Source of the DNA: Steroidobacter agaridevorans | GTDB taxonomy: Bacteria; Pseudomonadota; Gammaproteobacteria; Steroidobacterales; Steroidobacteraceae | Assembly (NCBI RefSeq): GCF_009932555.1 | Contig: NZ_BLJO01000009.1 | Location: 1-64,000 of the forward strand | Direction: 5' to 3' | DNA: 64,000 nt | Shown here: in pieces, positions 4,923 through 40,976 of the stretch | How the letters are laid out: the number at the start of each line of letters is the position of its first letter | Position numbering within the stretch: the stretch's first letter is position 1 | Notes under the pieces: model-generated | The model's input: only the letters and a program-made list of their open reading frames with translations | The model's database searches: none | Told to the model about the DNA's origin: nothing | Program-made: the position numbers and the translations under genes

Positions 4923-4976
4923 GTGAGCGCGATCTCAGAGATGATCGCGACACAGGGTACGGGCGCGGGGGACGCT

Positions 4977-6197: not shown

Positions 6198-6219
6198 GCA
6201 ATCATCGAAGACCTACCCC

Positions 6220-6510
6220 ATGAAACCCGGAACGAAACTGAAAAGCGCGGCCTGCGATACCGAAATCATGGTGGTCCGCGCCGGCGACGCGGCGATCGAA
6301 TGCGGCGGTTTGCCGATGGCGGAAGAGCGCCCGGCCGAGCGCAAGCCGATGAATCCGGCATTCGCCGAAGGAACCAAGATCGGCAAGCGCTATGTGAACG
6401 CGGCCGGCACCGTCGAGCTGCTCTGTGTGAAGCCCGGACAAGGATCGCTGTCGATTGCCGGGCAAGCGCTGAAAATCAAGGACGCGAAGCCGCTGCCCGC
6501 CTCCGACTGA
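6220..6510 (+). CDS. Small conserved-looking protein of unknown function
   Basis: A 96-residue soluble protein between the CoA transferase and an acyl-CoA ligase, 22 bp and 10 bp from them. It has a short N-terminal part with Cys residues (AACDTEIMVVRAGDAAIECGG) and a second Cys-containing strand (TVELLCVKPGQGSL), so it looks like a small beta-fold, possibly metal-binding. No signal peptide or membrane segment. Start ATG at 6220. I do not recognise the family; the tight operon position suggests it serves the CoA-activation step. Confidence 0.65.
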   Translation: MKPGTKLKSAACDTEIMVVRAGDAAIECGGLPMAEERPAERKPMNPAFAEGTKIGKRYVNAAGTVELLCVKPGQGSLSIAGQALKIKDAKPLPASD

Positions 6511-6520
6511 GTCGCTCGCG

Positions 6521-26351: not shown

Positions 26352-26474
26352 CGCGCCAGCCGCGCAAGGCACTGACTGGCACGCCGGATTTATCGTAAAA
26401 ACCAGGGGAATACTAAGTTCCTATAGGCATCTGAGCTGGCGGCCGAATTGCGCACCCCTCGCGCCTTGACGACT

Positions 26475-26496
26475 TAATCAACACCACTGATTATTA
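26475..26496. promoter_or_regulatory. Half-degenerate operator inside the promoter of the 26523 operon (site 3)
   Basis: TAATCAACA, CCAC, TGATTATTA: a perfect left arm and a weaker right arm. It fills the spacer between TTGACG (-35, 26466-26471) and GATTAT (-10, 26489-26494), 17 bp apart, and overlaps the -10. That is the standard place for a repressor site. It would control the plus-strand operon starting at 26523. Confidence 0.65.
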
Positions 26497-26522: not shown

Positions 26523-27287
26523 ATGGCTCTGTACACGACGCTCCATCTACACAATGTCCCCGCGGGCCGAGAAGCCGATTACGGCAGTTGGTTCGACGGC
26601 CCACACCGTGATGCGTTGAGTCGCTTGCGTGGCTTCGCTTCGGCGGATCGCTATGAAGTGACGCCTCAGCAGATCATGCCGGACATTCCGCAGCCGTGGC
26701 GCTACCTCAGCGTTTATGACTTCTCGTTCGAGACACCTGCGATCGACATCCCTGCGTTGGGGCCGCTGGTGGCCGATGCGCGCGATGCCGGCTTGATAGC
26801 AAACGACACGACCGAACGTCTGTATACCTATCGCATCTTCTCGGACTGGAAGCCCAGCCCGAACTGGCGCCGCAATGAGCCGCTCTCCGGCGTGAGCATC
26901 ATTCTCGCCAACTACGTGCCCGGCCGCTTTGACGAGTACCAGCATTGGTACGAAGAAGTGCACAGCGTGGAAGTGATCAACGTTCCCGGCCACGTCGCCA
27001 TGAAGCGCGGCGAACTGGCGCCCGTTCAGATCGAGCCGCGACACTACTGTCCCGGCGATCAACTCGTCCTGTGCGCTCAACAGACCGACGACCTGTTGTT
27101 CACGCTCAAGGATTTCAGTGCCCGGGCGCGAGGCGTGAGCCCAAGCGGCATCGCCATGCAGCCGCGCTCGGCAGCGGCTTCCGTCGCGCGTACAGTGCAT
27201 TACTTTCGCAAGATCAGCGGAACAAAATTTTGGCAGAACGGAATCGCCTATGCGGGCGATCTGTCCGTCTATCCCGGCAAAGCCTGA
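26523..27287 (+). CDS. Two-domain dimeric alpha/beta-barrel (EthD-like) protein
   Basis: A 254-residue protein of two ferredoxin-like halves: residues 1-110 (WFDGPHRDALSRLRGFASADRYE) and 120-250 (HWYEEVHSVEVINVPGHVAMKR). Both show the histidine plus Gly/Pro-Gly pattern of EthD-like or antibiotic-monooxygenase-like barrels. No cofactor motif. Such proteins help in ring or ether oxidation or act as cofactor-free mono-oxygenases. ATG at 26523 is about 20 bp from the predicted transcript start. First gene of the long plus-strand set. Confidence 0.7.
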   Translation: MALYTTLHLHNVPAGREADYGSWFDGPHRDALSRLRGFASADRYEVTPQQIMPDIPQPWRYLSVYDFSFETPAIDIPALGPLVADARDAGLIANDTTERLYTYRIFSDWKPSPNWRRNEPLSGVSIILANYVPGRFDEYQHWYEEVHSVEVINVPGHVAMKRGELAPVQIEPRHYCPGDQLVLCAQQTDDLLFTLKDFSARARGVSPSGIAMQPRSAAASVARTVHYFRKISGTKFWQNGIAYAGDLSVYPGKA

Positions 27288-27301: not shown

Positions 27302-28039
27302 GTGTCCAAAGTCATAGTCATTACCGGCGCCGGCATCGGCCTTGGTCGTGCACTCGCGCGTCGCTTCGCCGCCGACGGCGACCAGGTCGTGCTGCTCGGT
27401 CGCACGCTCTCGAAAGTGCAGGCCGCCGCGCAGGAGATCGGCGAACGCGCGATGGCTGTGGCCTGCGACGTTGCTTCTTCCGAGCAGGTCAAAGCGGCAT
27501 TCGCCGAGATCGCCAAGCGCCACCCGCGCATCGACGTGTTGATCAACAACGCCGCGATCTTCGAGCCCTTCCTGATTGCGGAAGCGACCGATGAGCAGAT
27601 CATGGGCACGCTGGCGACGAATCTCGGCGGCGCCATCCTGTGTGCGCGCTCGGCCATCCCGATGATGAATCGCGGCGGCCACATCCTGAGTGTGAGCAGC
27701 GAGTCGGTCGAGTTGCCCTTCCCGCATCTGCTGATGTACCAGACCACGAAGGCCGGCCTGGAGCGCTTCAGTTCCGGCCTGCACCGCGAACTGGAGCCGA
27801 ACGGCATTCGCGTCACCTGCGTTCGCGCCGGTCAGATGATGGAACAGGGCAAGGTCTGGAACGTCGACCCCGCCGCGCAAATGCGCTTCGCGAAGGCCGC
27901 CATGGAAGCAGGCATCAATCTGCGCGAACGGCCCATCACCCAATTCACGTCGGTCACGAACATATTTCGCGCGCTGATCGATCTGCCGCCCGACCTGCAC
28001 TCGCCGCTGGTCACACTCTCCGCGCGCAAAGCCAGCTAG
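27302..28039 (+). CDS. SDR-family oxidoreductase
   Basis: A 245-residue SDR: VITGAGIGLG, INNAA, SVSSESV and YQTTK. The GTG at 27302 is preceded by GGGGGAA and places SKVIVITGAG right at the start. An Arg after strand two (LLGRTLSKV) favours NADP(H). It follows the EthD-like gene by 14 bp. The alcohol or ketone substrate is unknown. Confidence 0.88.
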   Translation: MSKVIVITGAGIGLGRALARRFAADGDQVVLLGRTLSKVQAAAQEIGERAMAVACDVASSEQVKAAFAEIAKRHPRIDVLINNAAIFEPFLIAEATDEQIMGTLATNLGGAILCARSAIPMMNRGGHILSVSSESVELPFPHLLMYQTTKAGLERFSSGLHRELEPNGIRVTCVRAGQMMEQGKVWNVDPAAQMRFAKAAMEAGINLRERPITQFTSVTNIFRALIDLPPDLHSPLVTLSARKAS

Positions 28040-28222: not shown

Positions 28223-29689
28223 ATGACGATGCTCCCCGAAGCAAAGCTCTACATCGATGGCGTGATCCGCCGCGCCAGCGGCGACAAGACCTACGACAAC
28301 ACGGGCCCATGGACCGGCGAGGTCGTCGGCAAGGCCGCCGACGCCTCACGCGAGGACGTCGACGCAGCGATCGCCGCTGCCCGCCGCGCTTTCGATCGGA
28401 CCAACTGGTCGACCAGCCACGCGATGCGTTTCGAGTTGATGAAGAAGTATCGCGACCTGCTCTACGCAAATCGGCAGAAGCTCGTCGATATCTCGCGCTA
28501 CGAAGCCGGCGCAGCGATTGGCGCCGCCGCGCGCGCTCAAGTCGACGGCGCGCTGTTCGGCATGGACGGACTGCTCGAATGCTTCCCACTGGTGAAGTGG
28601 GAAGAAGATCGTGGCATTCGCCGCGACTATGGATTCGACACTGCGCGCATCGTGACGCATGAAGCCGTCGGTGTCGTTGGCGCAATCACGCCGTGGAATG
28701 TTCCTTTGTATGTGAACATCGGCAAGGTGGTCGCCGCCTTGTTGGCCGGCTGCACAGTGGTTCTGAAACCCGCGCCCGACACGCCGTTAATGGGCACATA
28801 CATGGGCGAGTTGGCCGCCGAAGCCGGTCTGCCGCCCGGCGTACTCAACGTCGTCACTTCCGCCGATCCGGCGATGGCGGGCGAAATGCTCGTCACCGAT
28901 CCGCGCGTCGATCTCATTTCTTTCACCGGCTCGACCGCCGTCGGCCGTCGCGTCATGGAGAAAGGCGCGGCGACGCTGAAGCGAGTGTTCCTCGAACTGG
29001 GCGGCAAGTCGGCCAATATCATTCTCGATGACGCTCCCAACTTCGCACAGACGGTGATGGGCGGCATGGTCGTGTTCCACGCCGGCCAGGGCTGCGCGTA
29101 TCCGACGCGACTGCTGGTGCCGAAGAGTCGGTATCAGGAAGCAATCAAGGCGCTCGAGATGGGCTATGCGGGCTTTGCCAGCAAATGGGGCGAGATCGAC
29201 GAGCCCACTTGCATCATGGGACCGGTGATCTCGCGCCGGCAGATGGATCGAGTGATGAGTTATATCGAGATTGGCAAGCAGGAAGGCGCTCGCCTGCTGG
29301 CGGGCGGCAAAGTGCGCACCGATAAAGGCGGCGGCTTCTTCGTCGAACCGACCTGCTTCGTCGACGTGCGCAACGATATGCGCATCGCCCGGGAAGAAAT
29401 CTTCGGCCCGGTGCTGGTGGTGATTCCGTACGAAGACGACGAGGACGCCATCCGCATCGCGAACGACAGCGAGTACGGACTCGGCGGCGCCATCTTCTCC
29501 GGCGACAAGGAGCGAGCCATTCGGATGGCCAAGCGCATTCGCACCGGATCGATCAGCGTCAACGGCGGCGTCAGCATCACGGGCGATCTGCCGTTCGGCG
29601 GCTACAAGTCGAGCGGCATCGGCCGCGAATGGGGCCGCGAAGGCATCGAAGAGTTTTTGGAAACAAAGGCGATCGGCATTCGCGCCTGA
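28223..29689 (+). CDS. Aldehyde dehydrogenase (NAD(P)-dependent)
   Basis: A 488-residue ALDH of normal length. The catalytic cysteine is in FHAGQGCAYPTR (usual FxxxGQxC) and the general-base glutamate in FLELGGKSANII; GFTGS-type turn is SFTGSTAVG. The ATG at 28223 has AGAGGA in front; the frame reads on to 28085 through the hairpin element, which is not coding. It should oxidise an aldehyde, perhaps from a side-chain alcohol, to the acid. Lies 184 bp after the SDR gene, so may have its own promoter. Confidence 0.94.
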   Translation: MTMLPEAKLYIDGVIRRASGDKTYDNTGPWTGEVVGKAADASREDVDAAIAAARRAFDRTNWSTSHAMRFELMKKYRDLLYANRQKLVDISRYEAGAAIGAAARAQVDGALFGMDGLLECFPLVKWEEDRGIRRDYGFDTARIVTHEAVGVVGAITPWNVPLYVNIGKVVAALLAGCTVVLKPAPDTPLMGTYMGELAAEAGLPPGVLNVVTSADPAMAGEMLVTDPRVDLISFTGSTAVGRRVMEKGAATLKRVFLELGGKSANIILDDAPNFAQTVMGGMVVFHAGQGCAYPTRLLVPKSRYQEAIKALEMGYAGFASKWGEIDEPTCIMGPVISRRQMDRVMSYIEIGKQEGARLLAGGKVRTDKGGGFFVEPTCFVDVRNDMRIAREEIFGPVLVVIPYEDDEDAIRIANDSEYGLGGAIFSGDKERAIRMAKRIRTGSISVNGGVSITGDLPFGGYKSSGIGREWGREGIEEFLETKAIGIRA

Positions 29690-29706: not shown

Positions 29707-29731
29707 CAGCGCACTTCAGCGAAGTGCGCTG
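29707..29731. terminator. Perfect 11-bp stem-loop after the aldehyde dehydrogenase
   Basis: CAGCGCACTTC-AGC-GAAGTGCGCTG, 18 bp after the ALDH stop and 68 bp before the sulfotransferase start. There is no T-run behind it on either strand, so it may be a weak or Rho-assisted terminator, or a 3'-end stabiliser. Confidence 0.5.
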
Positions 29732-29798
29732 TCGTCAAATGTCGATACATCCGGGCGCTCCTGACACAGCCTCGTAGTACGCTGCGCAGGAGACAGCC

Positions 29799-30950
29799 GT
29801 GGGGGACTACGAAGAATTGCTCGACGCCGCCCGGGCCGAGACGGATCTCGAGGACTTCGGTGCGGATGACTTCCTGGAAGGTCTGCAGATTCTCGTACGT
29901 GCGCTGCGCACTGAAGCTCAACTCAACGCGCTGGGCGAAGCAGTGTTGCGACAACGGATCGTCGGTCACCTCAAACAACGCCTGCAGGTGGAGGATTGGT
30001 ATCGTCGTCATCCCGAGATCGAGACCGTAGTCATTCGCGCGCCGCTGATCGGCCTCGGTCTGCCTCGTACTGGCTCGTCTGCGTTGTCATGCTTGCTCGC
30101 CGAGGATCCAAACTCTCGCTCTCTACTCACCTGGGAAGCGAGCGAACCGTGCCCTCCTCCTGCGACCGTTGTCGGCCCGGATCCACGCATCGAGCGTGCG
30201 CGCGAACTCAGTCGACGCTCGAATCTGAAATCGCACACACCCACGAGCGCGACCGGGCCGATCGAATGCCAGGACTTGATGGCGCTCGATTTCAAGGCAC
30301 ACATCTTTCAAGCCTTCGCGCAGATTCCGTCTTACTCGCAGTGGCTGTTGGCAGCGGATCTCACCTCGACGTATCTATACGAACGGCGGGTATTGAAGCT
30401 GCTGCAGTGGAAGTTTCCCGAGAAGCCGTGGCGGCTCAAAGCTCCGACTCACATTCTGTATCTCGATGCCCTCGTGCGCGCGTTTCCAGACGCACGCTTC
30501 GTGATGACTCACCGGGATCCGGCCGAGGTCGTTCTTTCGGTGGCGAACGTATATGCAGACATCGTCGGCAAGTTCACCGATGCGCTCGACAAACCCTATC
30601 TCGGCCAGCTGAATGTGAAGCAGTGGTCGGTGGGCATGAAGCGCGCCCTGGCGTTTCGAGAGAGCGGCGCCGATTCGAAGTTCTTCGATATCGACTTCCG
30701 GGTAATGCAGCGCGATCCGCTCGGCGAGGTCAGGGCCCTCTACGAATGGCTCGGTGCGCCGGTGACGGACGAGTTCGAGTCGGGCATGACGCGCTGGTGG
30801 AAGCACAACGCCGAAACGCGCGAGCCGAGCACGTCCGTCGATCCCGCCGGGTTCGGCCTGAGCGTCGAGCACATCCGTCCGCTGTTCGCCGAGTACACGG
30901 CCCGCGCCGCTCGCTGGACCAGCAAGGAGAGCACGAGACATGTCCATTGA
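29799..30950 (+). CDS. PAPS-dependent sulfotransferase family protein (second copy)
   Basis: A 383-residue homologue of the protein at 14654-15808: 5'-phosphosulfate loop LGLPRTGSSALSCLL and 3'-phosphate part VMTHRDPAEVVLSV. The catalytic-base histidine typical of the family could be in SHTPTSATGP. GTG start at 29799 with AGGAG 8 bases ahead. It overlaps the next gene by 11 bases. Acts presumably on a hydroxylated substrate or, like untested bacterial members, may do something else. Confidence 0.86.
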   Translation: MGDYEELLDAARAETDLEDFGADDFLEGLQILVRALRTEAQLNALGEAVLRQRIVGHLKQRLQVEDWYRRHPEIETVVIRAPLIGLGLPRTGSSALSCLLAEDPNSRSLLTWEASEPCPPPATVVGPDPRIERARELSRRSNLKSHTPTSATGPIECQDLMALDFKAHIFQAFAQIPSYSQWLLAADLTSTYLYERRVLKLLQWKFPEKPWRLKAPTHILYLDALVRAFPDARFVMTHRDPAEVVLSVANVYADIVGKFTDALDKPYLGQLNVKQWSVGMKRALAFRESGADSKFFDIDFRVMQRDPLGEVRALYEWLGAPVTDEFESGMTRWWKHNAETREPSTSVDPAGFGLSVEHIRPLFAEYTARAARWTSKESTRHVH

Positions 30951-31977
30951 TCTCACTGGCGGTCTCGACGCTTCGCGTGATCATGTGTTCGCGAAACGGC
31001 CCGACGAGCCGGAGATGCGGGATGCCGTGAACATGTGGGTTTCCGACGATCGCGGCGAGCTTGGCCTGCCCCGTTTCGCCGTGGAAGCGCTCGCCTCCAA
31101 ATGGGACAGTCACGATCTGTCGCTCAACATCGCCTTTCCCAACGGTCGAGCGTTGAGTGCGCGCGGCAGTGGCAAATCTCATTCGCCGATTGGCGGCGAC
31201 GGTAAGCCGACCGTCCTCGGCACCGGCCCGCTCGAATTTCGTTGCGTCGAGCCGTTTCGGTTGTGGACGACATCGTTCAAGGGCACGGCCGCCGAGATGA
31301 CGACGCAAGATCAAATAAATGGCGCGCTGCCCGGCCAGGGGCCCGCGGTCGATGTGGAGTTTCACATCGAGGCTCGCATGGCCGTGCCGCCGTGGATTCA
31401 GGGCCAGATGTCCGCAACCGCGGCGGCGCAGCTCAAATCCGGCGTCGAGGGCAACTTCATGGGCGGCGACCGTTTCGAACAACTGTTTCGCGCCCAGGGA
31501 ACGTTGCGTATCGGTAGCGAAGTCCACGCATTCAATGGCAGCGGTCTGCGCATCAAACGCCAGGGCATCCGCAAGATCGAAGGATTCTGGGGACATTGCT
31601 GGCAGTCCGCGCTGTTTCCGAGCGGCCGCGGTTTCGGATTCATCGCTTACCCGCCGCGCCCGGACGGCTCAGCCTCGTACAACGAGGGTTATATCTTCGA
31701 AGGCGACGGCACGCTGATTCCGGCTCGCGTCGTGCACGCACCCTGGCTGAGCAAGCTGCAAGCTCGCGATCAGGATGTGACGCTCGTGCTCGAATCCGAG
31801 CGAGGCCGAACCACCATCGAAGGCGAAACGCTCGTTTCGACGTTCGCAATGGGCCGGCCGGAAATGCCGCCCGACTTTCCAGTGCTACAGCAAGCCGGTG
31901 CGCGCTATCGATGGAACGGTGAAGAGACGTACGGAATGATCGAGCGCTCTTCGCGCAAGGACAAGATCACCCGATGA
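30940..31977 (+). CDS. Beta-rich protein of unknown function (possible CrtC/lipocalin-like)
   Basis: A 345-residue protein, overlapping the sulfotransferase and the SDR genes by 11 and 4 bases. Nearly all strand-like, with repeated Gly/Trp-rich turns (FRLWTTSFKGT, FNGSGLRIKRQGIRK, GHCWQSALFPSGRGFGF). That resembles the two-lobed CrtC/AttH hydroxylase-hydratase or lipocalin-like fold seen near hydrophobic-compound pathways. No signal peptide, cofactor motif or catalytic pair I can identify. The tight operon fit makes it a real gene; function unknown. Confidence 0.75.
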   Translation: MSIDLTGGLDASRDHVFAKRPDEPEMRDAVNMWVSDDRGELGLPRFAVEALASKWDSHDLSLNIAFPNGRALSARGSGKSHSPIGGDGKPTVLGTGPLEFRCVEPFRLWTTSFKGTAAEMTTQDQINGALPGQGPAVDVEFHIEARMAVPPWIQGQMSATAAAQLKSGVEGNFMGGDRFEQLFRAQGTLRIGSEVHAFNGSGLRIKRQGIRKIEGFWGHCWQSALFPSGRGFGFIAYPPRPDGSASYNEGYIFEGDGTLIPARVVHAPWLSKLQARDQDVTLVLESERGRTTIEGETLVSTFAMGRPEMPPDFPVLQQAGARYRWNGEETYGMIERSSRKDKITR

Positions 31978-32819
31978 GCCCGCTTACGGATCAGGTCGCC
32001 GTTATCACAGGTGGCGGCGCAGGCATCGGTCGCGCAATTGCGTTGGCCTTCGCCGCGGCCGGCGCCGACATCGTCATCGGAGACATCGTTCCCGAACGCT
32101 GCGATGAAACGGCTGCGCGCATACGCGAGATGGGCCGTAGAGCGTTGGCGGTCCCGACTGACGTCCTGGAGATCGACCGGATTCGCGCGCTGATAGCAAC
32201 GGCCAGCGAGCAATTCGGTCGCATCGACATTCTCGTGAATAACGCGGGCGGCGCGAAGCCTACGCCGTTCCTCGAACAATCCGAACGATCGTGGCGACGA
32301 CACATCGATCTCAACCTCGTCAGCATGTTCGCAGCCACGTCTGCCGTCGTGCCCGTGATGATCCGTGGCGGACGCGGTGGAACCATCATCAATGTGGCCA
32401 GCATCGAAGCGTCGCGTGCCGCTCCGAATTTTGCGGTCTACGCCGCATGCAAGGCAGGCATGCTCAACTTCACTCGCACGATGGCGCTGGAGCTGGCGGA
32501 CCATCGCATTCGCGTCAATGCCATTGCGCCCGACTACACCGTGACTCCAGGATTGCGCGGCAATTTCACTGGCCCGGTCGATCCGGCCTCATGGGTACAG
32601 CCAACCGAACAGCAGGAAGCAGCGGCGGCCCGACGCATTCCCCTCGGCCGACCTGGCGTCGACACCGAGTGCGGCCAGGTTGCTTTATTTCTCGCGTCAA
32701 CGATGAGTTCCTATGTCACTGGCTCGGTGATACCGGTCGACGGCGGTGCGTGGGCCTCGAGCGGCTGGCTGCGAAACAAAGCCGGCAAGTGGACGCTCAT
32801 CGGCGACATCACGCCGTAA
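31974..32819 (+). CDS. SDR-family oxidoreductase
   Basis: A 281-residue SDR: ITGGGAGIG, NNAGG, NVASIEAS with the catalytic serine and YAACK. An aspartate after strand two (VIGDIVPERC) favours NAD(H). It starts in an ATGA overlap with the preceding gene and ends 15 bp before the first LLM oxidoreductase, tying the catabolic genes to the F420 module. Substrate unknown. Confidence 0.88.
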   Translation: MSPLTDQVAVITGGGAGIGRAIALAFAAAGADIVIGDIVPERCDETAARIREMGRRALAVPTDVLEIDRIRALIATASEQFGRIDILVNNAGGAKPTPFLEQSERSWRRHIDLNLVSMFAATSAVVPVMIRGGRGGTIINVASIEASRAAPNFAVYAACKAGMLNFTRTMALELADHRIRVNAIAPDYTVTPGLRGNFTGPVDPASWVQPTEQQEAAAARRIPLGRPGVDTECGQVALFLASTMSSYVTGSVIPVDGGAWASSGWLRNKAGKWTLIGDITP

Positions 32820-32834
32820 GCACGGACGATCAAC

Positions 32835-33758
32835 ATGCGAATCAACGTCACTCTGCCCTTCGATCAGTTCCACGATGGCGATGGGTTCCTGACTCCCGAA
32901 GCCGTCATGGAGATCGGCGCTACGATGGAGCGCGTCGGCTTTGCCGGATGCAATGTGACCGATCATCCCTGCCCTTCGGGGCGCTGGCTCGATGCGGGCG
33001 GCCATCACGCGCAGGACCCGTTCGTGATGCTGTCCCTCGTCGCCATGGCCACGTGCACCGTGCGTTTGCAAACGGGAATCCTGGTACTGCCCTATCGCAA
33101 TCCGTTCATCACGGCGCGCGCGGTCGCCACACTCGACGCTTTTTCCCGCGGTCGGGTGACGCTAGGCATCGGCGCCGGCTATATGAAAGGCGAATACTTC
33201 GCACTCGGCGTCGATTTCGAGCGGCGCAACGAAATCGTCGACGAGTACATCGACGCACTGAAGGCCGCGTGGACCGCGGATGAGTTCTCTTTCAAAGGCA
33301 CGAACTACGAGGCGCGCGGCAGTCGCATCCTTCCCCGACCAGTGCAGACACCTCACCCGCCGCTGCTCATCGGTGGCAACTCCCATCGCGCCATCCGTCG
33401 TGCGGTGGAGAAAGGCGACGCCTGGTATCCCTTCTTTACAGCGCCCGGCGTATCGACAACATCGCGGACAGCGCCCCTGACCAATGAGAGCGACCTGGCT
33501 GTCGCCCTTCAGTACTTGCGAGAGCACTGTGAGAAGGTTGGCCGCGAGCGCCCGCCCGAAATCATCCTCGGCAGCCTCAGCATGATCGAGCGCCGGTTCA
33601 ACGCCGAAGCGGTGCTGGAAAAGATCGGCAAGTTGCGCGAGCTCGGCGTCGTCGGCGCCGCCGTACACGTGCAAGCGAGTACGCGTGCCGAGTGGTGCGA
33701 TCTCGCGGAACATTTCGGCGAGGCCGTGTTGAGCAAACTTCGCCACGGTCGTCCATGA
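32835..33758 (+). CDS. LLM-class oxidoreductase, probably F420-dependent
   Basis: A 307-residue luciferase-like TIM-barrel protein. VTDHPCPSGR (Asp43-His44) is the end of strand 2 where F420 enzymes hold the deazaflavin; LQTGILVLPYRNP, LGIGAGYMKGEYFALG and LLIGGNSHRAIRRA follow the F420-dependent Rv2161c-like group. FMN use cannot be excluded from sequence alone, but the neighbours (FGD, CofC, FbiC) favour F420. It would use reduced F420 to reduce a C=C or C=O of the pathway. Its stop overlaps the next gene (ATGA). Confidence 0.85.
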   Translation: MRINVTLPFDQFHDGDGFLTPEAVMEIGATMERVGFAGCNVTDHPCPSGRWLDAGGHHAQDPFVMLSLVAMATCTVRLQTGILVLPYRNPFITARAVATLDAFSRGRVTLGIGAGYMKGEYFALGVDFERRNEIVDEYIDALKAAWTADEFSFKGTNYEARGSRILPRPVQTPHPPLLIGGNSHRAIRRAVEKGDAWYPFFTAPGVSTTSRTAPLTNESDLAVALQYLREHCEKVGRERPPEIILGSLSMIERRFNAEAVLEKIGKLRELGVVGAAVHVQASTRAEWCDLAEHFGEAVLSKLRHGRP

Positions 33759-34771
33759 ATCGAGCACCGCTGCAGCTGGGCTACAAGGCGTCGTCGGAGC
33801 AGTTCGGGCCGACCGAGTTGCTGAACTACGCCGTGCTCGCCGAGACGGTGGGTCTCGATTCGGTTTGGATCAGCGACCACTTTCAGCCATGGCGGCACAC
33901 GGGCGGACACGCACCTTTCTCGTTGGCGTGGCTCGGCGCATTGGGCGCACGCACTTCTCGTGTGCTCATCGGCACGAGTGTGCTGACACCGACATTCCGC
34001 TATCACCCGTCGGTCGTCGCGCAGGCGTTTGCCACGTTGGGAGCCCTGTTTCCCGGGCGAGTCGCGCTGGGCGCGGGCACGGGGGAATCGCTCAATGAAG
34101 TACCGGCGAGCGGCATGCACTGGCCCGAGCAGAAAGAGCGCACGGCCCGCTTCAAGGAAGCGATCGACCTGATCCGCCGACTGTGGATCGAGGAACAACT
34201 GACCTACGAGGGCACTTTCTACAGGACCGCGAATGCGACGATCTACGATCGGCCCGACCTACCGGTTCCTATCTACATCGCTGCCGCGGGTCCGGTTATG
34301 GCGAAGTTTGCAGGCGAACATGGCGACGGCTTCATTTGCACGAGCGGCAAGCCATGGGAGCTTTACACGCAGACGCTGTTGCCGAGCTTGCATACGGGCT
34401 TGCAGCAAGCTGGCAAAACTCCGCGAGCCTTCGATCGCATGATTGAGATCAAGCTGTCATTCGACACCGACCGAGAGCGAGCGCTGCAGGACACACGCTT
34501 CTGGGGCGCGCTCGCACTCCGGCCCGAGGAAAAGCTCAACGTCGAAGACCCCTTGGAGATGGAGCGATTGGCTGACGCGCTGCCGGTGGAACGCGCCGCC
34601 TCGCGTTGGATTGTCAGCAACGATGCGGACGAAACCGTGCAACGGGTCGGTCAATATGTGGAGCTCGGCTTCAATCACCTGGTGTTCCATGCGCCGGGGC
34701 CGGATCAAGGCCGTTTCCTCGAACTCTTCGGCGAACAGATCGCGCCGCGTCTGCGCGCGAAGTTCGGATAG
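33755..34771 (+). CDS. fgd: F420-dependent glucose-6-phosphate dehydrogenase (FGD) homologue
   Basis: A 338-residue protein strikingly like mycobacterial FGD1: LGYKASSEQFGP at the start, SDHFQPWRHTGGHAPFSL, SVLTPTFRYHPSV, GTGESLNE, DGFICTSGK and FHAPGPDQGRFLELF at the end. The FGD1 active-site residues Asp39, His40, Trp44 and Glu109 correspond, with a constant shift of two, to Asp41, His42, Trp46 and Glu111. FGD oxidises glucose 6-phosphate and reduces F420, the supply of F420H2. ATG at 33755 overlaps the previous stop. Strong homology; the sugar phosphate is inferred. Confidence 0.93.
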   Translation: MNRAPLQLGYKASSEQFGPTELLNYAVLAETVGLDSVWISDHFQPWRHTGGHAPFSLAWLGALGARTSRVLIGTSVLTPTFRYHPSVVAQAFATLGALFPGRVALGAGTGESLNEVPASGMHWPEQKERTARFKEAIDLIRRLWIEEQLTYEGTFYRTANATIYDRPDLPVPIYIAAAGPVMAKFAGEHGDGFICTSGKPWELYTQTLLPSLHTGLQQAGKTPRAFDRMIEIKLSFDTDRERALQDTRFWGALALRPEEKLNVEDPLEMERLADALPVERAASRWIVSNDADETVQRVGQYVELGFNHLVFHAPGPDQGRFLELFGEQIAPRLRAKFG

Positions 34772-34782
34772 CAGGCGTTGGT

Positions 34783-35463
34783 ATGGCATCGACCTGGGCA
34801 TTGGTTCCTCTCAAATCGAGCGAACGGGCCAAGTCGCGGCTCGCTGAAGTGCTGGATGCCGAACAGCGCAGGCAGCTGTTCTTTGCGCTCGCGGAACAGG
34901 TCATCGTCGCCCTGCATGAGAGCAGGAACATTGACGCAGTCGCCGTCGTAACGTCGAGCCTTGAAGTCGCTGAGTTCGCGACGTCGCTGCACGCGATGCC
35001 GATCCTGCAGGAGGCAGACGCGGGTATGTCGCCCGCGCTCGAGTCGGCACTGCGAAGTTTTCAGGCTATGCAGCTAGAGCGCGTATTGATGGTGCCGGGC
35101 GATCTTCCTCTGATCTCCGCTCGCGCGGTGGATGCGATCTTCGAAGCTCAAACTGCGAGCGAGCAGGTCGTGCTCGTCCCCGACCGTCGTCACGAAGGCA
35201 CGAACGCCTTGCTCTGCTCGCCTCCGCAGGCGATAGCGCCGCGCTTCGGCAGTTGCAGCTTCACACGGCACCTGAGTGCGGCTCGCGCCGCCAACATCGC
35301 CACACGTGTTGTTGAGATCGAGGAACTGGCGCTCGATCTGGATTGCGCCGACGATCTGGATTACCTGCGCAGTCATGCATTCGAGCGCTCGGCAAGTCTT
35401 TTGGCGCCGCTGCGCTTGGCGACTGCCAGCAATGTGCCACTCCGCGCAGCGCTCGTCGGGTGA
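34783..35463 (+). CDS. cofC: CofC-type guanylyltransferase of F420 biosynthesis
   Basis: A 226-residue nucleotidyltransferase: WALVPLKSSERAKSRL at residues 5-20 is the GTP-binding signature, and VPGDLPLIS carries the metal aspartate Asp107; LDLDCADDLDYL closes the fold. CofC/FbiD joins GMP to 2-phospholactate, phosphoenolpyruvate or 3-phosphoglycerate to make the side-chain donor of F420. Which three-carbon acid is used cannot be seen. ATG at 34783, 11 bp after the FGD stop; the frame upstream overlaps that gene and is not used. Confidence 0.9.
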   Translation: MASTWALVPLKSSERAKSRLAEVLDAEQRRQLFFALAEQVIVALHESRNIDAVAVVTSSLEVAEFATSLHAMPILQEADAGMSPALESALRSFQAMQLERVLMVPGDLPLISARAVDAIFEAQTASEQVVLVPDRRHEGTNALLCSPPQAIAPRFGSCSFTRHLSAARAANIATRVVEIEELALDLDCADDLDYLRSHAFERSASLLAPLRLATASNVPLRAALVG

Positions 35464-35467
35464 CGCA

Positions 35468-37855
35468 ATGATGCTGAGCCCAGAACAGTGCTACGAACTG
35501 CTGGCGCATGCTGACTGGCGTGATCTCTCGCCACTCGCTACGAAGCTTCGCGAGCAAGTGTGGGGAACGCGTGTCAGCTATTCGCGCAAGGTTTTCGTGC
35601 CGCTGACGCAGCTGTGCCGTGACGTTTGCCACTACTGCACGTTTGCGAAGACTCCCAGTCGCTTGTCGAAGCCGTATCTCACCCCGGACGAGGTTCTTCG
35701 AATCGCACATGAAGGTGCCGCACTGGGCTGCAAGGAGGTGTTGTTCACGCTCGGAGACCAGCCGGAGCTGCGCTATGCAAGGGCGCGCGACGCACTCACC
35801 GAGCTGGGCTTTGCGACGACGTTGGCGTATCTCGAACATGTCGCGGCGCTGGTACTGCGTGAAACCGGGCTGCTGCCTCATCTCAATCCTGGTTTGATGA
35901 GCGCGAACGATCTCGCCCGGCTGCGACATGTCGCACCTTCGATGGGCATCATGCTGGAATCCGCCGCCGAACGTCTGTGCGAACGAGGCGGCCCGCACTA
36001 CGGCTCACCCGACAAAGCACCGTCCCGGCGATTGGAAACACTGCGCCTGGCCGGCGAAGCCCGCATCCCGATGACCAGCGGCATTCTCATCGGCATCGGC
36101 GAAACACGACGCGAGCGTATCGATTCGCTGCTGGCGCTGCGCGACCTCGCCGACCGCTATGGTCATCTCCAGGAAATCATCATTCAGAACTTCCGTGCCA
36201 AGGCTGGCACGAAGATGCAGCACTCGCCGGAGCCATCCAACGATGAGCTGTGCTGGACAGTCGCCGTCGCTCGATTGATGTTCGGTCCGCAGATGAGCAT
36301 TCAGGCGCCGCCGAATCTCTACGATGGCGACCTGACCGAGCTCATTGCGGCCGGCATCAACGATTGGGGTGGCGTATCGCCGCTCACGCCGGATCATGTG
36401 AATCCGGAGGCACCCTGGCCACATCTCGATCGGCTCGCGACCGAGACCGGTCGGGCCGGTTGCGACTTGGTTGAGCGGCTTACCGCTTATCCCAGTTATG
36501 TACGGGCTCGGCACGAATGGCTTGCAGATGAGCTGCAAGCGCCCGTGCTGAGACAGTCGGACGGCGCCGGATGGGCACGCGTTGGCCGTTGGTGTGCCGG
36601 AGCTGCGGATCCAGCAAATCAGGACGATCTTCGCGATGTGACTCCGGCAGCGGTTGTGCGCCGTTCCCGAATCGCTGATCTGGTGGAGCGGGCGGCAACT
36701 GGCAATGAACTCGTTGAAGACGAGATCGCCGAGATCTTCACCGCGCGTGGCGCGGATTTCGTTCGCACCTGCGAGGTCGCAACCGAAGTGCGACAGCAAG
36801 CGGTCGGCGACACAGTGAGTTATGCCGTCGTCCGCAATATCAATTACACGAACGTTTGCTTGTACAAATGTGGCTTCTGCGCTTTCTCCAAGGGGCGCAC
36901 GCACGAGCACCTCCGTGGCGCACCGTATCTGGTCGACCTCGACGAAATCCGCCGCCGCGTGCGCGAAGCATGGGAGCGAGGCGGCACGGAAGTGTGCATG
37001 CAGGGCGGCATCCATCCTTCCTTCACGGGACACACTTATTTAGAGATTTGCCGGGCGGCGAAGCAGGCACAACCGCAGATTCACATTCACGCGTTCTCGC
37101 CGCTCGAAGTCAGCCATGGCGCGCAAACGCTCGGCATTTCGGTGCGCGATTTCCTCATGGAACTCAAGCAAGCGGGATTGGGCTCGCTGCCGGGAACGGC
37201 GGCGGAGATTCTGGATGACGAGATCCGCGGCGTCCTCGCGCCCGACAAGCTGAGCACGCGGGAATGGCTGGATGTTGTCGCTCAGGCGCATCGGGTGGGT
37301 CTGCCCACGACTTCGACGATCATGTTCGGACACATCGAAGGCTATGAGCACTGGGCCAGGCACCTGTTGCTGTTGAGACGATTGCAGCAGGACACCGGCG
37401 GACTGACCGAGTTCGTTCCTCTGCCCTTCGTCCATATGGAAGCGCCAATGTATCTGCGTGGGCGCGCGCGTAAGGGGCCGACGCTGCGGGAGACGGTGCT
37501 GATGCATGCGGTGGCCCGCTTGGTGCTCCATCCGGTTGTGCCGAATGTGCAGGTATCGTGGGTGAAGCTTGGCCCGCAATGGGCGCAGCGTTGCCTCGAG
37601 GCCGGGGCGAACGATCTCGGCGGTACTTTGATGAACGAGTCCATCAGCCGCGCCGCGGGCGCGACGCACGGACAGGAGCTAGAGCCGCATCAGATGCAGC
37701 AGCTCATCGCGGAGTTAGGGCGTCCATATCGGCAGCGAACGACGCTGTATGGGGATGCCAACGCTGAGCAGATCGAGCGCGCCGACTGCGCGGCGCCACT
37801 GCTCAAGCCGTACAACGCGCCGCTTTCGAGCAGAGCGATGCGCGTCGTAGCATGA
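35468..37855 (+). CDS. fbiC: FO synthase, fused CofG-CofH (FbiC)
   Basis: A 795-residue fused radical-SAM enzyme that makes the deazaflavin chromophore FO from tyrosine and a 5-amino-6-ribitylaminouracil. CofG half: Cys50, Cys54, Cys57 in LCRDVCHYCTF. CofH half: Cys464, Cys468, Cys471 in VCLYKCGFCAF. Other markers are LNPGLMSANDL, APPNLYDGDL and MQGGIHPSFTG. Mycobacterial FbiC is about 856 residues, so this one is slightly short. ATG at 35468 or the next codon, 2 bp after the cofC stop. Fourth gene of the F420 module; convergent with 37857. Confidence 0.96.
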   Translation: MMLSPEQCYELLAHADWRDLSPLATKLREQVWGTRVSYSRKVFVPLTQLCRDVCHYCTFAKTPSRLSKPYLTPDEVLRIAHEGAALGCKEVLFTLGDQPELRYARARDALTELGFATTLAYLEHVAALVLRETGLLPHLNPGLMSANDLARLRHVAPSMGIMLESAAERLCERGGPHYGSPDKAPSRRLETLRLAGEARIPMTSGILIGIGETRRERIDSLLALRDLADRYGHLQEIIIQNFRAKAGTKMQHSPEPSNDELCWTVAVARLMFGPQMSIQAPPNLYDGDLTELIAAGINDWGGVSPLTPDHVNPEAPWPHLDRLATETGRAGCDLVERLTAYPSYVRARHEWLADELQAPVLRQSDGAGWARVGRWCAGAADPANQDDLRDVTPAAVVRRSRIADLVERAATGNELVEDEIAEIFTARGADFVRTCEVATEVRQQAVGDTVSYAVVRNINYTNVCLYKCGFCAFSKGRTHEHLRGAPYLVDLDEIRRRVREAWERGGTEVCMQGGIHPSFTGHTYLEICRAAKQAQPQIHIHAFSPLEVSHGAQTLGISVRDFLMELKQAGLGSLPGTAAEILDDEIRGVLAPDKLSTREWLDVVAQAHRVGLPTTSTIMFGHIEGYEHWARHLLLLRRLQQDTGGLTEFVPLPFVHMEAPMYLRGRARKGPTLRETVLMHAVARLVLHPVVPNVQVSWVKLGPQWAQRCLEAGANDLGGTLMNESISRAAGATHGQELEPHQMQQLIAELGRPYRQRTTLYGDANAEQIERADCAAPLLKPYNAPLSSRAMRVVA

Positions 37856-37856
37856 G

Positions 37857-38666
37857 CTATTCCTTATCCTTGCTCTTCCCGCCGATGCTCTGAATGTACC
37901 GCTCGATGCCGGCGAGATACTCCGGATTGAGCATCAGCGCGCTGTTCGCCATCCGCTCGACGTTGCGGGCTTGCGCGAGCCCAACGTCGTGCGCCAACTC
38001 GATGGCAATCTTCGCCGTACCCATCTGCTCGCCGTTCTGCTGAGCCAGATGGCGGCAGAACTTCATGACGTCTTCAGCGAACGTCTCGTCCGGGAACACT
38101 TCGTGAACCAGCCCCATGATCAGCGCCTTGTCCGCGCTCGCCGGCAGGTTCGCCATGATGAGATAGCGCGCCCAATGCGGCCCGATGATGCGCGCCAGGC
38201 GGCTCACACCATTGGAGGCCGGCAGCACTCCGAACTTGCCCTCCGGGAACGCATAACTCGCGCTCCTGGCCGCGAGCCGAAAATCACAGGATAGCGATAA
38301 CTCCAGCCCCCCACCGACGCAGGCGGCGTGGTGGGCGACGACGATCGGCTTCTCGATCGCCTCCATCTCATCGTAAATGCGATGCATGCCATGCAATCGC
38401 AGGCGATGTTTCTCGCGGATCGCCGATCCCGTTCGCGCCGGCCCGCCTTCGTCGTTGCCACGCAGGTCGGCGCCCGCGCAGAAATATCGGCCGTTCGCAC
38501 GAACCAGCAACACCTTCAGCTCGGGCGTGTCGCGGAAATGATGTAGCGCCTGCTCGAACAGCGACATCGTCTCGGCGGACAGCGAATTCAGCTTGTCCGG
38601 TCGATTCAGGGTCGCGATCAGGATCGCGCCGTCCTGTTCGGTCAGCAGATGGGGAGCTTCGGACAC
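37857..38666 (-). CDS. Enoyl-CoA hydratase/isomerase
   Basis: A 269-residue crotonase of normal size: ATLNRPDKLNSLS, the oxyanion-hole loop GRYFCAGADLRGN and VGGGLELSLSCDFRLAA, then FPEGKFGVLPASNGVSRL. Only one of the two usual catalytic glutamates is obvious (FPEGKFG), so hydratase activity is likely but not proven. The start is GTG at 38666 after AGGAG. It follows the double acyl-CoA dehydrogenase by 13 bp, the natural next step of beta-oxidation, and shares operator site 4. Confidence 0.9.
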   Translation of the reverse strand: MSEAPHLLTEQDGAILIATLNRPDKLNSLSAETMSLFEQALHHFRDTPELKVLLVRANGRYFCAGADLRGNDEGGPARTGSAIREKHRLRLHGMHRIYDEMEAIEKPIVVAHHAACVGGGLELSLSCDFRLAARSASYAFPEGKFGVLPASNGVSRLARIIGPHWARYLIMANLPASADKALIMGLVHEVFPDETFAEDVMKFCRHLAQQNGEQMGTAKIAIELAHDVGLAQARNVERMANSALMLNPEYLAGIERYIQSIGGKSKDKE

Positions 38667-38679
38667 AGTCGTCTCCTGC

Positions 38680-40887
38680 TCAGGCTCGGCTGCGCGGCAG
38701 ACCCAGCCCGCGCTCGGCGATCATACTGCGATGGACTTCGCTGGTGCCGCCATAGATCGTCGTGCCCTGCGCGTGGCGGTAACATTGATTGAGGAAGCCC
38801 GCCGGGCCGCTGCGATTGGAGAGCGAATACGGCGCGGTGAGATTCAACAGATCGGCGGAATCCTTCAGGAACTTCTCGGACGAGAACAGTTTCGCCATCG
38901 GGCCATAGCCTACGTTCGGGTGCTTCTGGGTCGCTGCCCACACCGCGCGATACGCAATGACTTCTGAAAGCAGCACATGCGCCGTCGAGCGCGCCAAGCG
39001 CACTTGAGCCGCCGGGTCTTCGATCAAAGACCCGCCTCGATAGCGAATCTCGCGGCACAGCTCCTCGGCGGCGTGCACCATGTGTCGCTGGCTCTTCGAA
39101 AAGCCTCCGCCGTGCTCCATCTCCAGCGCGCCAGCCATCACTTTTACGCCGCCGTCGACCGGCCCGAGGCGATAGCTGTCCTTGACCTTCACGCCATCGT
39201 AGTAAGTGATATTGGTGCGCTCGTCCTGGAACGTAAACACCGGCTGGATGCTCACACCGGCACTCTTCAGCGGCACGATGAACATCGTCAACCCTTTGTG
39301 CTTGGGCACGTCGGGATTGGTCCGCGTCAGCATCAGCACGTAATCGGCGATGTTGGCGCCACTCGTAAACATCTTGGAGCCGTCGATGCGCCAACCTTCA
39401 CCATCACGCGTCGCGCGAGTCTGGGCAGCAAAGACGTCGGACCCGCAACTCGGCTCCGAGTAGCCGAGACTGCAGACGACTTCGCCTGACACGATCTTCG
39501 TCAGCACCTCGCGCTTCAACTCATCGCCGCCGAACAGCCGGATCATGGTGCCGACCAATCCGGTCGTGCTGATCGCATGACTGCTCCAGCCCACCTCTTC
39601 CCAGGCCTGATGCAAGGCGTTCATCGCGTACGGCGGCGCCTGTCGACCGCCCCATTCCTTCGGCCACGACGGGAACAACAAGCCGGCTTCGGCGAGCTGA
39701 CGATGCACGCCGGCATCGTGCCCGTCGAAAGAATAGTGAGCTTTGGCTCGGAGCTCGGGCGTCAGCGTCTTCTCGAAGAACGAGTGGACTTCCTTCGCCA
39801 GCGCATGCGCCTCTTCGCCCAGATCGAAATCGATCGTCACCGCTCCGGCATCGGGCAAAGCTGCCTGCTCGCCGGAATAAAGCCGTCGCCCGGCTTCTTC
39901 CAACAAGCGCGCTGGGTCGCCCAGAATCAGCGGCCAGGCCTTGGCGCGAAGGTTATATAGATGAATGTCGTATTCGGTTGTGAGGCCGTAACCGCCGAAC
40001 GTGTGCAGCGCCTGCGCGACCGCGCGCCCCGCTGTATCGACGTTCCACCACGTGGCCAGCGAAACTTCCGCGCCCGCCTCGGCTTTGCCATCGGCGATAT
40101 CTCGAATGGCTTTCCAAGTCAGGAACTTGCCACCGTCGACATCGGTGCTGAGATCCGCAAGCGGATGTGAGATCGCTTGATACGTCCCGATCGGCTGGCC
40201 GAAGGCCGAGCGTTCGCAAGCGTAGGCCGAAGCAAGACGGATTGCCTCGCGGGACAGGCCTGCGAGCGCGGCTGAAATCAGCAGCTTCCATTCCTCGATG
40301 GCCTGCGCGAAAAGCCTGCGGCCCGATTCATTGTTCGACAACACCGAACGCTCGCCATCTGCGAGACGCAACTCGGCGATGGGTGTCGACGCAAGATTCG
40401 GCTCCGCCTTGCGCTCGCTCGCCGGCACCTGAATCAGCACGATTCGATCGCCATCGCGCGCAATGACAGCTTCCGCGACCGATCCGCCGGCGACCCACTG
40501 CACCGGCTCATCCGCAATGTCATGAAATGCGATGCTCACCACCGCTTCGCCGGACAGCACACGTTCGAGCCAGGCATTCGTGGCGCTCGGCGCCAGCGTT
40601 GCGAGCAAACGGGCTGCAACGAGTGTTTCGGCGATAGGCCCCGATGCCAGCGTCCGGCCCACCTCTTCCATGAATACGACCGCGTCGAGCAGCCCGAGGC
40701 CGACACCGCCGGCATCCTCGGGCACACGCAAAGAGAATGCACCCAGCTCCGCCAGCCCACTCCACAACGCCGGATCGAAGCCTGACGGCTGCGCGGCGCG
40801 CACGCGGCCCATGCTGCTGTTTTCGTCGAGATAACGAGCGAAGTTTTCGCGCAGCAGTTGCTGGTCTTCGGAAAGCTCGAAGTTCAT
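38680..40887 (-). CDS. Double acyl-CoA dehydrogenase (two ACAD modules in one chain)
   Basis: 735 residues, about twice the usual 380. Module 1 (1-350) has an ACAD N-domain (LSEDQQLLRENFARYL) and the C-terminal part ACERSAFGQPIGTYQAI...TFGGYGLTTEYDIH. Module 2 (360-735) has GYSEPSCGSDVFA, RIDGSKMFTSGA and the end GTTIYGGTSEVHRSMIAERGLG. In steroid degradation such enzymes often work as heterodimers of two half-active subunits; this fusion looks like such a pair joined. FAD-dependent desaturation of an acyl-CoA. Starts 68 bp downstream of operator site 4, followed by an enoyl-CoA hydratase. Confidence 0.9.
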   Translation of the reverse strand: MNFELSEDQQLLRENFARYLDENSSMGRVRAAQPSGFDPALWSGLAELGAFSLRVPEDAGGVGLGLLDAVVFMEEVGRTLASGPIAETLVAARLLATLAPSATNAWLERVLSGEAVVSIAFHDIADEPVQWVAGGSVAEAVIARDGDRIVLIQVPASERKAEPNLASTPIAELRLADGERSVLSNNESGRRLFAQAIEEWKLLISAALAGLSREAIRLASAYACERSAFGQPIGTYQAISHPLADLSTDVDGGKFLTWKAIRDIADGKAEAGAEVSLATWWNVDTAGRAVAQALHTFGGYGLTTEYDIHLYNLRAKAWPLILGDPARLLEEAGRRLYSGEQAALPDAGAVTIDFDLGEEAHALAKEVHSFFEKTLTPELRAKAHYSFDGHDAGVHRQLAEAGLLFPSWPKEWGGRQAPPYAMNALHQAWEEVGWSSHAISTTGLVGTMIRLFGGDELKREVLTKIVSGEVVCSLGYSEPSCGSDVFAAQTRATRDGEGWRIDGSKMFTSGANIADYVLMLTRTNPDVPKHKGLTMFIVPLKSAGVSIQPVFTFQDERTNITYYDGVKVKDSYRLGPVDGGVKVMAGALEMEHGGGFSKSQRHMVHAAEELCREIRYRGGSLIEDPAAQVRLARSTAHVLLSEVIAYRAVWAATQKHPNVGYGPMAKLFSSEKFLKDSADLLNLTAPYSLSNRSGPAGFLNQCYRHAQGTTIYGGTSEVHRSMIAERGLGLPRSRA

Positions 40888-40954
40888 GGACGGACGACTC
40901 GTGACGCGATGGTCGAGACCACAGGAGAATGACCCTAACCGGTCGCTTCCCCGC

Positions 40955-40976
40955 TAGTCAACAGCTGTGTTGACTA
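40955..40976. promoter_or_regulatory. Perfect palindromic operator before the double ACAD (site 4)
   Basis: TAGTCAACA, GCTG, TGTTGACTA: the two 9-bp arms are exact reverse complements. On the minus strand it holds TTGACT as -35, in the same register as sites 1 and 2; the -10 is weak. It also overlaps the stop codon of the upstream hydrolase gene (40974-40976), so the operator and the gene end share bases. Confidence 0.75.

What the first reader, a model, noticed from the sequence alone, without database searches (positions are those of the whole stretch)
32835..37855. Coenzyme F420 module embedded in a Gram-negative catabolic operon
An LLM oxidoreductase, an FGD homologue, CofC and full FbiC follow each other with 15-bp gaps or overlaps, right behind an SDR and a sulfotransferase. 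F420 is best known from actinobacteria and archaea. In this setting it should serve as reductant for a degradation step, so synthesis, reduction and use of the cofactor would be switched on with the substrate.
Basis: partly seen in the sequence, partly recalled or inferred. Interest (0 to 1): 0.85.

Follow-up and report, generated by a model that had tools for sequence, protein, structure and literature searches.

The report
F420 cofactor genes inside degradation operon
A gammaproteobacterium carries genes that make, recharge and probably use the redox cofactor F420 in the same gene run as enzymes for breaking down an unidentified compound, while the last two cofactor genes sit elsewhere in its genome.

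Summary
F420 in Gram-negatives is not itself new: 75 of the 80 FGD loci kept, nearly all titled proteobacterial, hold further F420 biosynthesis genes. The catabolic setting is less usual. Congener G179 has nearly the same run plus cofE; G025 has SDR-LLM-cofC-fbiC before CoA-transferase and ligase genes of the same island; G171 has TonB receptor-LLM-FNO-cofC-fbiC. In the family (217 genomes, 64 with cofE), FGD (23 of 23) and relatives of this LLM (9 of 9) occur only with cofE. Best reading: a use-recharge-synthesise F420 unit serving one reductive degradation step. Against it: two of the four genomes with a close LLM lack FGD, and the LLM's fold matches FMN-type monooxygenases first. Substrate, LLM cofactor and co-induction are unproven.

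The parts
26466..26494 (+). promoter-like site (TTGACG-17-GATTAT) upstream of the run
   Evidence: only promoter-like match in 25900-38100, but shuffles give a mean of 2.1, so not significant; no counterpart in the aligned G179 DNA
26523..27287 (+). first gene of the run, 254 aa, no Pfam match; labelled EthD in my scripts by eye only
   Evidence: no family; 83% identical gene in the G179 run
27302..28039 (+). SDR oxidoreductase 1
   Evidence: PF00106; 84% in G179
28223..29689 (+). aldehyde dehydrogenase (start chosen by comparison with G179)
   Evidence: PF00171 466.9 bits; 84% in G179
29799..30950 (+). sulfotransferase
   Evidence: PF13469 132.3 bits; 71% in G179
30940..31977 (+). DUF7064-like protein of unknown function
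   Evidence: PF23212 22.6 bits, below cut-off 24.7; at E 1e-20 in 3 of 217 family genomes
31974..32819 (+). SDR oxidoreductase 2
   Evidence: PF13561/PF00106; 77% in G048 and 73% in G025, directly before the LLM in both; not found in the G179 run
32835..33758 (+). LLM-class oxidoreductase, the probable F420H2 user
   Evidence: TIGR03619 233.8 bits, cut-off 166.9; all 9 of the 217 family genomes with a relative at E 1e-30 also have cofE
33755..34771 (+). [quoted passage not shown]
   Evidence: TIGR03554 484.9 bits, cut-off 420; K199, K260, R284 and S75-V76 conserved
34783..35463 (+). CofC, guanylyltransferase of F420 side-chain synthesis
   Evidence: TIGR03552 155.2 bits, cut-off 105; 3 of 4 residues tied to 3-PG use differ
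35468..37855 (+). FbiC (CofG-CofH), FO synthase; the only one found in the genome
   Evidence: NF006687 1128.5 bits, cut-off 1018; two CX3CX2C motifs; one place over the cofH cut-off in G000
37857..38666 (-). enoyl-CoA hydratase family, convergent neighbour of fbiC
   Evidence: PF00378; with the next gene 80% at DNA level on the same contig of G179, about 13.5 kb from its fbiC match
38680..40887 (-). two-domain acyl-CoA dehydrogenase
   Evidence: PF00441, PF02771 and PF02770; two halves matched by different models
10664..12349 (+). 3-ketosteroid-delta-1-dehydrogenase-like FAD protein of the same island
   Evidence: PRK12844 668 bits, below cut-off 789; 78% relative between LLM and cofE in G048, 56% relative inside the G179 run
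4923..8041 (+). CoA-transferase III (4923-6197), a small protein (6220-6510) and an AMP-binding ligase (6521-8041): relatives of these follow fbiC in G025

Best explanation
The bacterium makes F420. FbiC and CofC from this run make FO and the activated side chain; the unlinked CofD and CofE on another contig finish the cofactor (shown at gene level only). FGD oxidises glucose-6-phosphate and reduces F420 to F420H2 (inferred from an above-cut-off match and conserved phosphate-binding residues). The adjacent LLM protein spends F420H2 on one hydride-transfer step (inferred from linkage and co-occurrence) in the breakdown of a hydrophobic, possibly alicyclic or steroid/terpenoid-like compound (weak inference from the neighbouring P450, SDR, ALDH, CoA-ligase, crotonase and KstD-like genes). 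A use-recharge-synthesise unit of this kind has been assembled with different recharging enzymes in congeners: FGD in G000 and G179, FNO in G171.
For: cofE and cofD are present above cut-off and adjacent. FGD equivalog with conserved residues. No FNO over cut-off in G000. LLM-FGD-cofC-fbiC contiguous in G179 at 74% DNA identity, cofE next on the same strand, cofD about 1.3 kb further past an opposite-strand gene, and five of the six upstream genes of the run also present. G025: SDR2 (73%)-LLM (65%)-cofC-fbiC-CoA-transferase (76%)-small protein (71%)-ligase (76%), with one small opposite-strand gene between LLM and cofC. G048: SDR2 (77%)-LLM (71%), KstD-like (78%), cofE and a cofC-fbiC open frame within about 15 kb. 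G171: TonB receptor-LLM-FNO-cofC-fbiC, the last four 3 bp apart or overlapping. Of 217 family genomes 64 have cofE; all 23 with FGD and all 9 with LLM relatives are among them (hypergeometric P 2e-14 and 1e-5, not corrected for shared ancestry).
Against: Foldseek's first 42 rows for the LLM model are titled monooxygenases or luciferases; F420-dependent Mer appears at ranks 43, 47 and 48 of the 50 shown; phmmer hits are mixed. Of the four genomes with a close LLM, G048 and G025 have no FGD over cut-off (best 281.7 and about 71 bits, cut-off 420); FNO was not searched there. F420 genes occur in the genus without FGD or a close LLM (G168, G171, G169). A 55% LLM paralogue in G025 has no F420 gene recognised in the 13.6 kb held; linkage of the five weaker relatives was not examined. 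cofE and cofD are not in the run here. An FDOR-A gene on contig 2 is a second candidate user. No recognised dehydro-F420 reductase. Gaps of 183 and 109 bp around the ALDH leave the extent of the transcript open. No regulator was linked to the run.
Confidence: 0.52

Rival explanations
1. The LLM is an F420-dependent dehydrogenase (like Adf or hydroxymycolic acid dehydrogenase): it oxidises a hydroxyl of the substrate and makes F420H2, and FGD is a second source or works on another sugar phosphate.
For: Both directions are known among F420 LLM enzymes (PMC8498797 passages); the run holds SDR and ALDH genes that handle alcohols and aldehydes; G048 and G025 have the LLM without FGD over cut-off.
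Against: An F420-reducing enzyme directly beside the LLM in G000 and G179 (FGD), and FNO beside another LLM in G171, fits consumption of F420H2 better.
Confidence: 0.17
2. F420 is a general cofactor of the cell, used mainly by other enzymes; its genes only happen to lie behind a catabolic gene run.
For: FDOR-A on contig 2, three other LLM proteins; G168 keeps cofC-fbiC and cofE-cofD without FGD over cut-off and without a close LLM.
Against: Linkage of this LLM to F420 genes and to genes of the same island survives at 65-80% LLM identity in three other genomes of two genera, with different gene orders.
Confidence: 0.18
3. The LLM is an FMN-dependent monooxygenase that does not use F420; FGD-cofC-fbiC are hitchhikers.
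For: Foldseek ranks MsuD, a B. cereus LLM, RslO1 and SfnG first; phmmer hits mix monooxygenases and F420 enzymes.
Against: Above cut-off for TIGR03619, whose name says F420-dependent (the name is itself a prediction); all 9 genomes with relatives have cofE; Pfam found no flavin reductase in the run (one gene has no match).
Confidence: 0.13

Closest known systems
Proteobacterial F420 gene clusters with FGD (predicted for Alphaproteobacteria in PMC8498797 section 23, citing Ney et al. 2017)
   Same: FGD beside F420 biosynthesis genes, LLM genes often near; seen again in 75 of 80 loci
   Different: Many of those run FGD-cofE-cofD-cofC with fbiC near; here cofE and cofD are unlinked and a sulfotransferase/DUF7064-like/SDR run precedes the module
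Picrate/dinitrophenol F420H2 hydride-transfer system of Rhodococcus and Nocardioides (PMC8498797 passages; the gene name npd is recalled)
   Same: LLM-class F420H2 user in a degradation pathway
   Different: Actinobacterial; recharged by FNO, not FGD (recalled); whether FO or CofC synthesis genes sit in it was not checked
Sterolibacterium denitrificans cofC, cofD and cofE listed beside steroid degradation genes (figure legend in PMC6678751)
   Same: F420 biosynthesis genes next to acyl-CoA and steroid genes in a Gram-negative
   Different: cofC/D/E rather than cofC-fbiC; no FGD or LLM is named in the passage seen
3PG-F420 pathway of Mycetohabitans (PMC8764529)
   Same: Its CofC (7p97) is the closest solved CofC (E 8e-33)
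   Different: Residues tied to 3-PG use (S162, H145, C95) are G, E and L here, so 3PG-F420 is not predicted

Membership tests
F420 biosynthesis pathway | FbiC (or CofG plus CofH) with two radical-SAM motifs | tested here: met
   NF006687 above cut-off; CRDVCHYC and CLYKCGFC
F420 biosynthesis pathway | CofC | tested here: met
   TIGR03552 155.2 bits, cut-off 105
F420 biosynthesis pathway | CofD in the genome | tested here: met
   G000:C12:118685-119587, 270.7 bits, cut-off 257.45; control genomes over cut-off 3 of 14
F420 biosynthesis pathway | CofE in the genome | tested here: met
   G000:C12:117933-118673, 268.6 bits, cut-off 180.65; control genomes over cut-off 3 of 14, all archaea
F420 biosynthesis pathway | dehydro-F420 reductase (FbiB C-terminal type), needed if PEP is the precursor | tested here: inconclusive
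   best match 62.7 bits against cut-off 249.55; 0 of 14 genus genomes pass; not needed if 2-phospholactate is used
3PG-F420 variant | CofC residues S162, H145 and C95 of the Mycetohabitans enzyme | tested here: not met
   G156, E138, L86; M91 is kept as M82 (residues from PMC8764529 passages)
[quoted passage not shown]
[quoted passage not shown]
   needs purified protein
TIGR03619 LLM oxidoreductase | family score over cut-off | tested here: met
   233.8 bits, cut-off 166.9
TIGR03619 LLM oxidoreductase | uses F420 rather than FMN | tested here: inconclusive
   co-occurrence favours F420; fold search ranks monooxygenases first
Picrate-type (npd) catabolic F420 system | NADPH:F420 oxidoreductase as the recharging enzyme (recalled as a feature) | tested here: not met
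   no npdG match over cut-off in G000, best 38.6 bits against 149.8; FGD instead

The most novel reading that the evidence does not exclude
In these bacteria F420 is an on-demand catabolic cofactor: a movable unit of user LLM, interchangeable F420-reducing enzyme (FGD or FNO), cofC and fbiC travels with degradation genes, is the cell's only source of FO, and plugs into an older, unlinked cofE-cofD pair, so that the first half of a cofactor pathway follows a growth substrate while the second half does not.
Probability: 0.33. Interest if true: 0.75.

Novelty: new variant of a known kind. Interest (0 to 1): 0.52.

Why it matters
The 2021 review states that no F420H2-dependent reductase or F420-reducing dehydrogenase had been investigated experimentally in bacteria outside the actinobacteria, and that the role of F420 there was open (PMC8498797 section 23). 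This run offers a candidate user, a recharging enzyme and a pathway context in one testable unit, in a gammaproteobacterial family in which 64 of 217 genomes carry cofE over cut-off. A positive test would give an early physiological role of F420 in a Gram-negative (a 2024 paper, seen only as a listing with the start of its abstract, reports one for a deazaflavin in Mycetohabitans symbiosis) and a new F420H2-dependent degradation step.

Tried and rejected
Rejected: 'no cofD/cofE in the genome' (searches find both). Rejected: 3PG-F420, suggested by the closest solved CofC, because three of the four specificity residues differ. Not supported: recent import of FGD from the alphaproteobacteria sampled; the window FGD groups with G179 and then G021/G024 of the same family (that tree holds one very long row, G118, that is not a real FGD, only the 35 best outside loci, and no typical actinobacterial FGD, so the deeper origin stays open). 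Led nowhere: AlphaFold of the DUF7064-like protein alone (mean pLDDT 34.7); Foldseek on the LLM model (pLDDT 86.6) did not decide FMN or F420; promoter and terminator scans were at shuffle level; DNA before the first gene shows no shared promoter between G000 and G179. Literature searches: F420 with Steroidobacter gave 1 paper, whose F420 mention is in a legend on Sterolibacterium genes; a search for at least four of five terms on F420 biosynthesis in degradation clusters gave 0. Only open-licence papers are held, so absence there is weak. Ney et al. 2017 is not held and is cited through the review. For co-occurrence only over-cut-off matches were counted for family models; G143 has cofH without cofE, and 5 genomes have cofE without cofH over cut-off. 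The DNA comparison scored 40 of 96-420 first-look candidates per genome, so short matches may be missed.
Full report
WHAT IS THERE. With starts fixed they are LLM 32835-33758, FGD 33755-34771, cofC 34783-35463 and fbiC 35468-37855. They close a same-strand run: unnamed 254-aa protein 26523-27287, SDR 27302-28039, ALDH 28223-29689, sulfotransferase 29799-30950, DUF7064-like 30940-31977, SDR 31974-32819. From the sulfotransferase to fbiC the spacings are -11, -4, 15, -4, 11 and 4 bp; around the ALDH they are 183 and 109 bp, so one transcript is likely for 29799-37855 and open for the first three genes. Beyond fbiC the next gene is convergent, with one base between the two ends.

IS F420 MADE? 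The genome holds one cofE and one cofD, adjacent, on contig 12, both above cut-off, followed by ferredoxin- and ferredoxin-reductase-like genes, a 2-methylcitrate synthase and a PrpD-like gene (only the synthase was tested against a library, the others are named by eye). FbiC has one over-cut-off place in the genome, the one in this window. So the genes are complete, with one caveat: if CofC uses PEP, a dehydro-F420 reductase is needed, and no FbiB-type domain passes its cut-off in any of 14 genus genomes. CofC resembles the 3-phosphoglycerate enzyme of Mycetohabitans most among solved structures, but at residues which PMC8764529 ties to that specificity it has G, E and L where the 3-PG enzyme has S162, H145 and C95; a PEP or 2-phospholactate enzyme is predicted.

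HOW IS IT REDUCED? FGD matches TIGR03554 at 484.9 bits (cut-off 420; 0 of 14 control genomes pass) and aligns over nearly its whole length to Rhodococcus and Mycobacterium FGD1. The three phosphate-binding residues tested by mutagenesis in Rh-FGD1 (PMC5352752, passages) are K199, K260 and R284 here, and the Ser-Val cis-peptide pair is S75-V76. FNO is not found over cut-off in this genome; within the 14 genus genomes FNO passes in G169 and G171 only, FGD in G000 and G179 only, and G168, which has cofE and fbiC, has neither.

WHO USES IT? The LLM is the nearest candidate. Orthologues of 65-80% exist in three other genomes of the 217-genome family and lie near F420 biosynthesis genes in each: G179 LLM-FGD-cofC-fbiC-cofE, with cofD about 1.3 kb on past an opposite-strand aldo/keto reductase-like gene; G025 SDR2-LLM-(small opposite gene)-cofC-fbiC; G048 SDR2-LLM with cofE and a cofC-fbiC open frame within about 15 kb. 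G048 and G025 have no FGD over cut-off, and FNO was searched only in the genus, so their recharging enzyme is unknown. A second G025 paralogue (54-55%, contig 99) has no F420 gene recognised in the 13.6 kb held. At E 1e-30 relatives occur in 9 of 217 genomes, all among the 64 with cofE; linkage was examined for the four close ones only. Against F420, the AlphaFold model (pLDDT 86.6) has proteins titled monooxygenases or luciferases in its first 42 Foldseek rows, with F420-dependent Mer at ranks 43, 47 and 48 of the 50 shown; sequence hits among solved structures are mixed. The fold does not decide the cofactor. Other candidate users exist: an FDOR-A protein on contig 2 beside an EthD-domain gene and three more PF00296 proteins. 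PF04075 is found in 3 of 14 genus genomes (G000, G169, G179), all cofE-positive, and in neither of the other two cofE-positive ones.

CATABOLIC CONTEXT. In G179 nearly the same run precedes the module (71-84% identity: 254-aa protein, SDR, ALDH, sulfotransferase, DUF7064-like), with a KstD-like gene added and SDR2 missing. In G025 the F420 genes are followed by a CoA-transferase, a small protein and an AMP-binding ligase 71-76% identical to window 4923-8041. The window also carries P450, ChsH2-like, thiolase-like, amidohydrolase, crotonase and acyl-CoA dehydrogenase genes on both strands and a KstD-like protein (668 bits, cut-off 789). This looks like a degradation island for a hydrophobic ring compound; steroid or terpenoid is a guess. 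In G171 a different unit with the same logic exists: TonB receptor, LLM (Mer-like, below the Mer cut-off), FNO, cofC and fbiC, the last four overlapping or 3 bp apart by mechanical ORF ends, with cofE-cofD on another contig.

IS IT UNUSUAL? The premise that F420 is an actinobacterial and archaeal matter is out of date (PMC8498797, sections 9 and 23). Of the 80 loci, 75 hold at least one further F420 biosynthesis gene in the DNA held: cofE 74, cofC 63, cofD 62, fbiC 40, all four 36; 41 have some LLM hit and 1 an LLM of 45% or more to this one. Flanks were cut by contig ends in many, so these are lower bounds. The five without are L005, L006, L066, L071 and L072. In the family FGD passes in 23 of 217 genomes, all 23 with cofE; cofH passes in 60, of which 59 have cofE. 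What is less usual is the long catabolic run in front and the split of the pathway.

HISTORY. G000 and G168 are close (cofE 95%, cofD 96%, ferredoxin-like 99%, PrpD-like 98%, acyl-CoA dehydrogenase 98%), yet fbiC is 81% and cofC 74% identical, and of window 28201-48200 G168 has only cofC-fbiC and one acyl-CoA dehydrogenase as matches over 1 kb, side by side. The FbiC tree (quick method) still joins G000 with G168 (SH-aLRT 90), then G179 and G171. Replacement of cofC-fbiC by recombination with a relative carrying the island, or loss of the island in G168 with fast divergence, are both possible; I do not decide. In G179 cofE and cofD lie between fbiC and the crotonase gene that abuts fbiC in G000, so G000 may have lost them, being served by the contig-12 pair.

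ORGANISM. G169 is one contig of 3,467,246 bases, which I recall as about the size of Steroidobacter denitrificans. The taxon is therefore probably Steroidobacteraceae (Gammaproteobacteria), perhaps Steroidobacter.

LITERATURE SEEN. PMC8498797: abstract, outline, sections 9 and 23, passages. PMC8764529: abstract, outline, passages. PMC5352752: passages. PMC6678751: passages, including the legend listing cofC, cofD and cofE beside steroid genes of Sterolibacterium denitrificans. Others only as search listings.

CHANGE AT CHECKING. On rereading I added that G048 and G025 lack FGD over cut-off; for that I lowered the best explanation from 0.55 to 0.52 and the novel case from 0.35 to 0.33, and raised two rivals slightly.

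VERDICT. A real F420 unit in a catabolic setting, gene-complete across two contigs and repeatedly assembled in relatives. New variant of a known kind; the biochemical claims remain predictions.

Noticed in passing
L193:4066-11145 (G171): TonB receptor-LLM-FNO-cofC-fbiC run: the same logic as the window, with FNO in place of FGD and a Mer-like LLM.
   Followed up: yes
L198:4443-7427 (G048), L176 (G199), L177 (G203): CofC and FbiC lie in one open reading frame in 3 of 33 family loci examined (CofC was detected in 23 of the 33), a possible CofC-CofG-CofH fusion.
   Followed up: partly
window 34783-37855 and 45697-46824 against L192 and L166: Between G000 and G168 cofC and fbiC are far more diverged (74% and 81%) than nine other genes compared (95-99%), which suggests recombination or replacement.
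   Followed up: partly
window 29799-31977; L195; L196; L149: Sulfotransferase and DUF7064-like genes are adjacent in all four places where the latter was found in the family, a conserved two-gene pair of unknown function.
   Followed up: partly
window 26037-26233 (-): Small ferredoxin-like gene upstream of an SDR and a P450 and divergent from the run; named by eye.
   Followed up: no
L208:8154-9037 (G000 contig 2): FDOR-A (PF04075) gene overlapping an EthD-domain gene, another candidate F420 user; PF04075 is in 3 of 14 genus genomes, all cofE-positive.
   Followed up: partly
L003:11916-18084 (G000 contig 12): cofE-cofD followed by ferredoxin- and ferredoxin-reductase-like genes, 2-methylcitrate synthase and PrpD-like genes, conserved at 84-99% in G168 and G171.
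   Followed up: partly
L005 (titled Alphaproteobacteria MAG): The best FGD match of the named-genome scan (75%) has no F420 biosynthesis gene in the 15.6 kb held but P450- and ferredoxin-like hits about 2 kb away.
   Followed up: no
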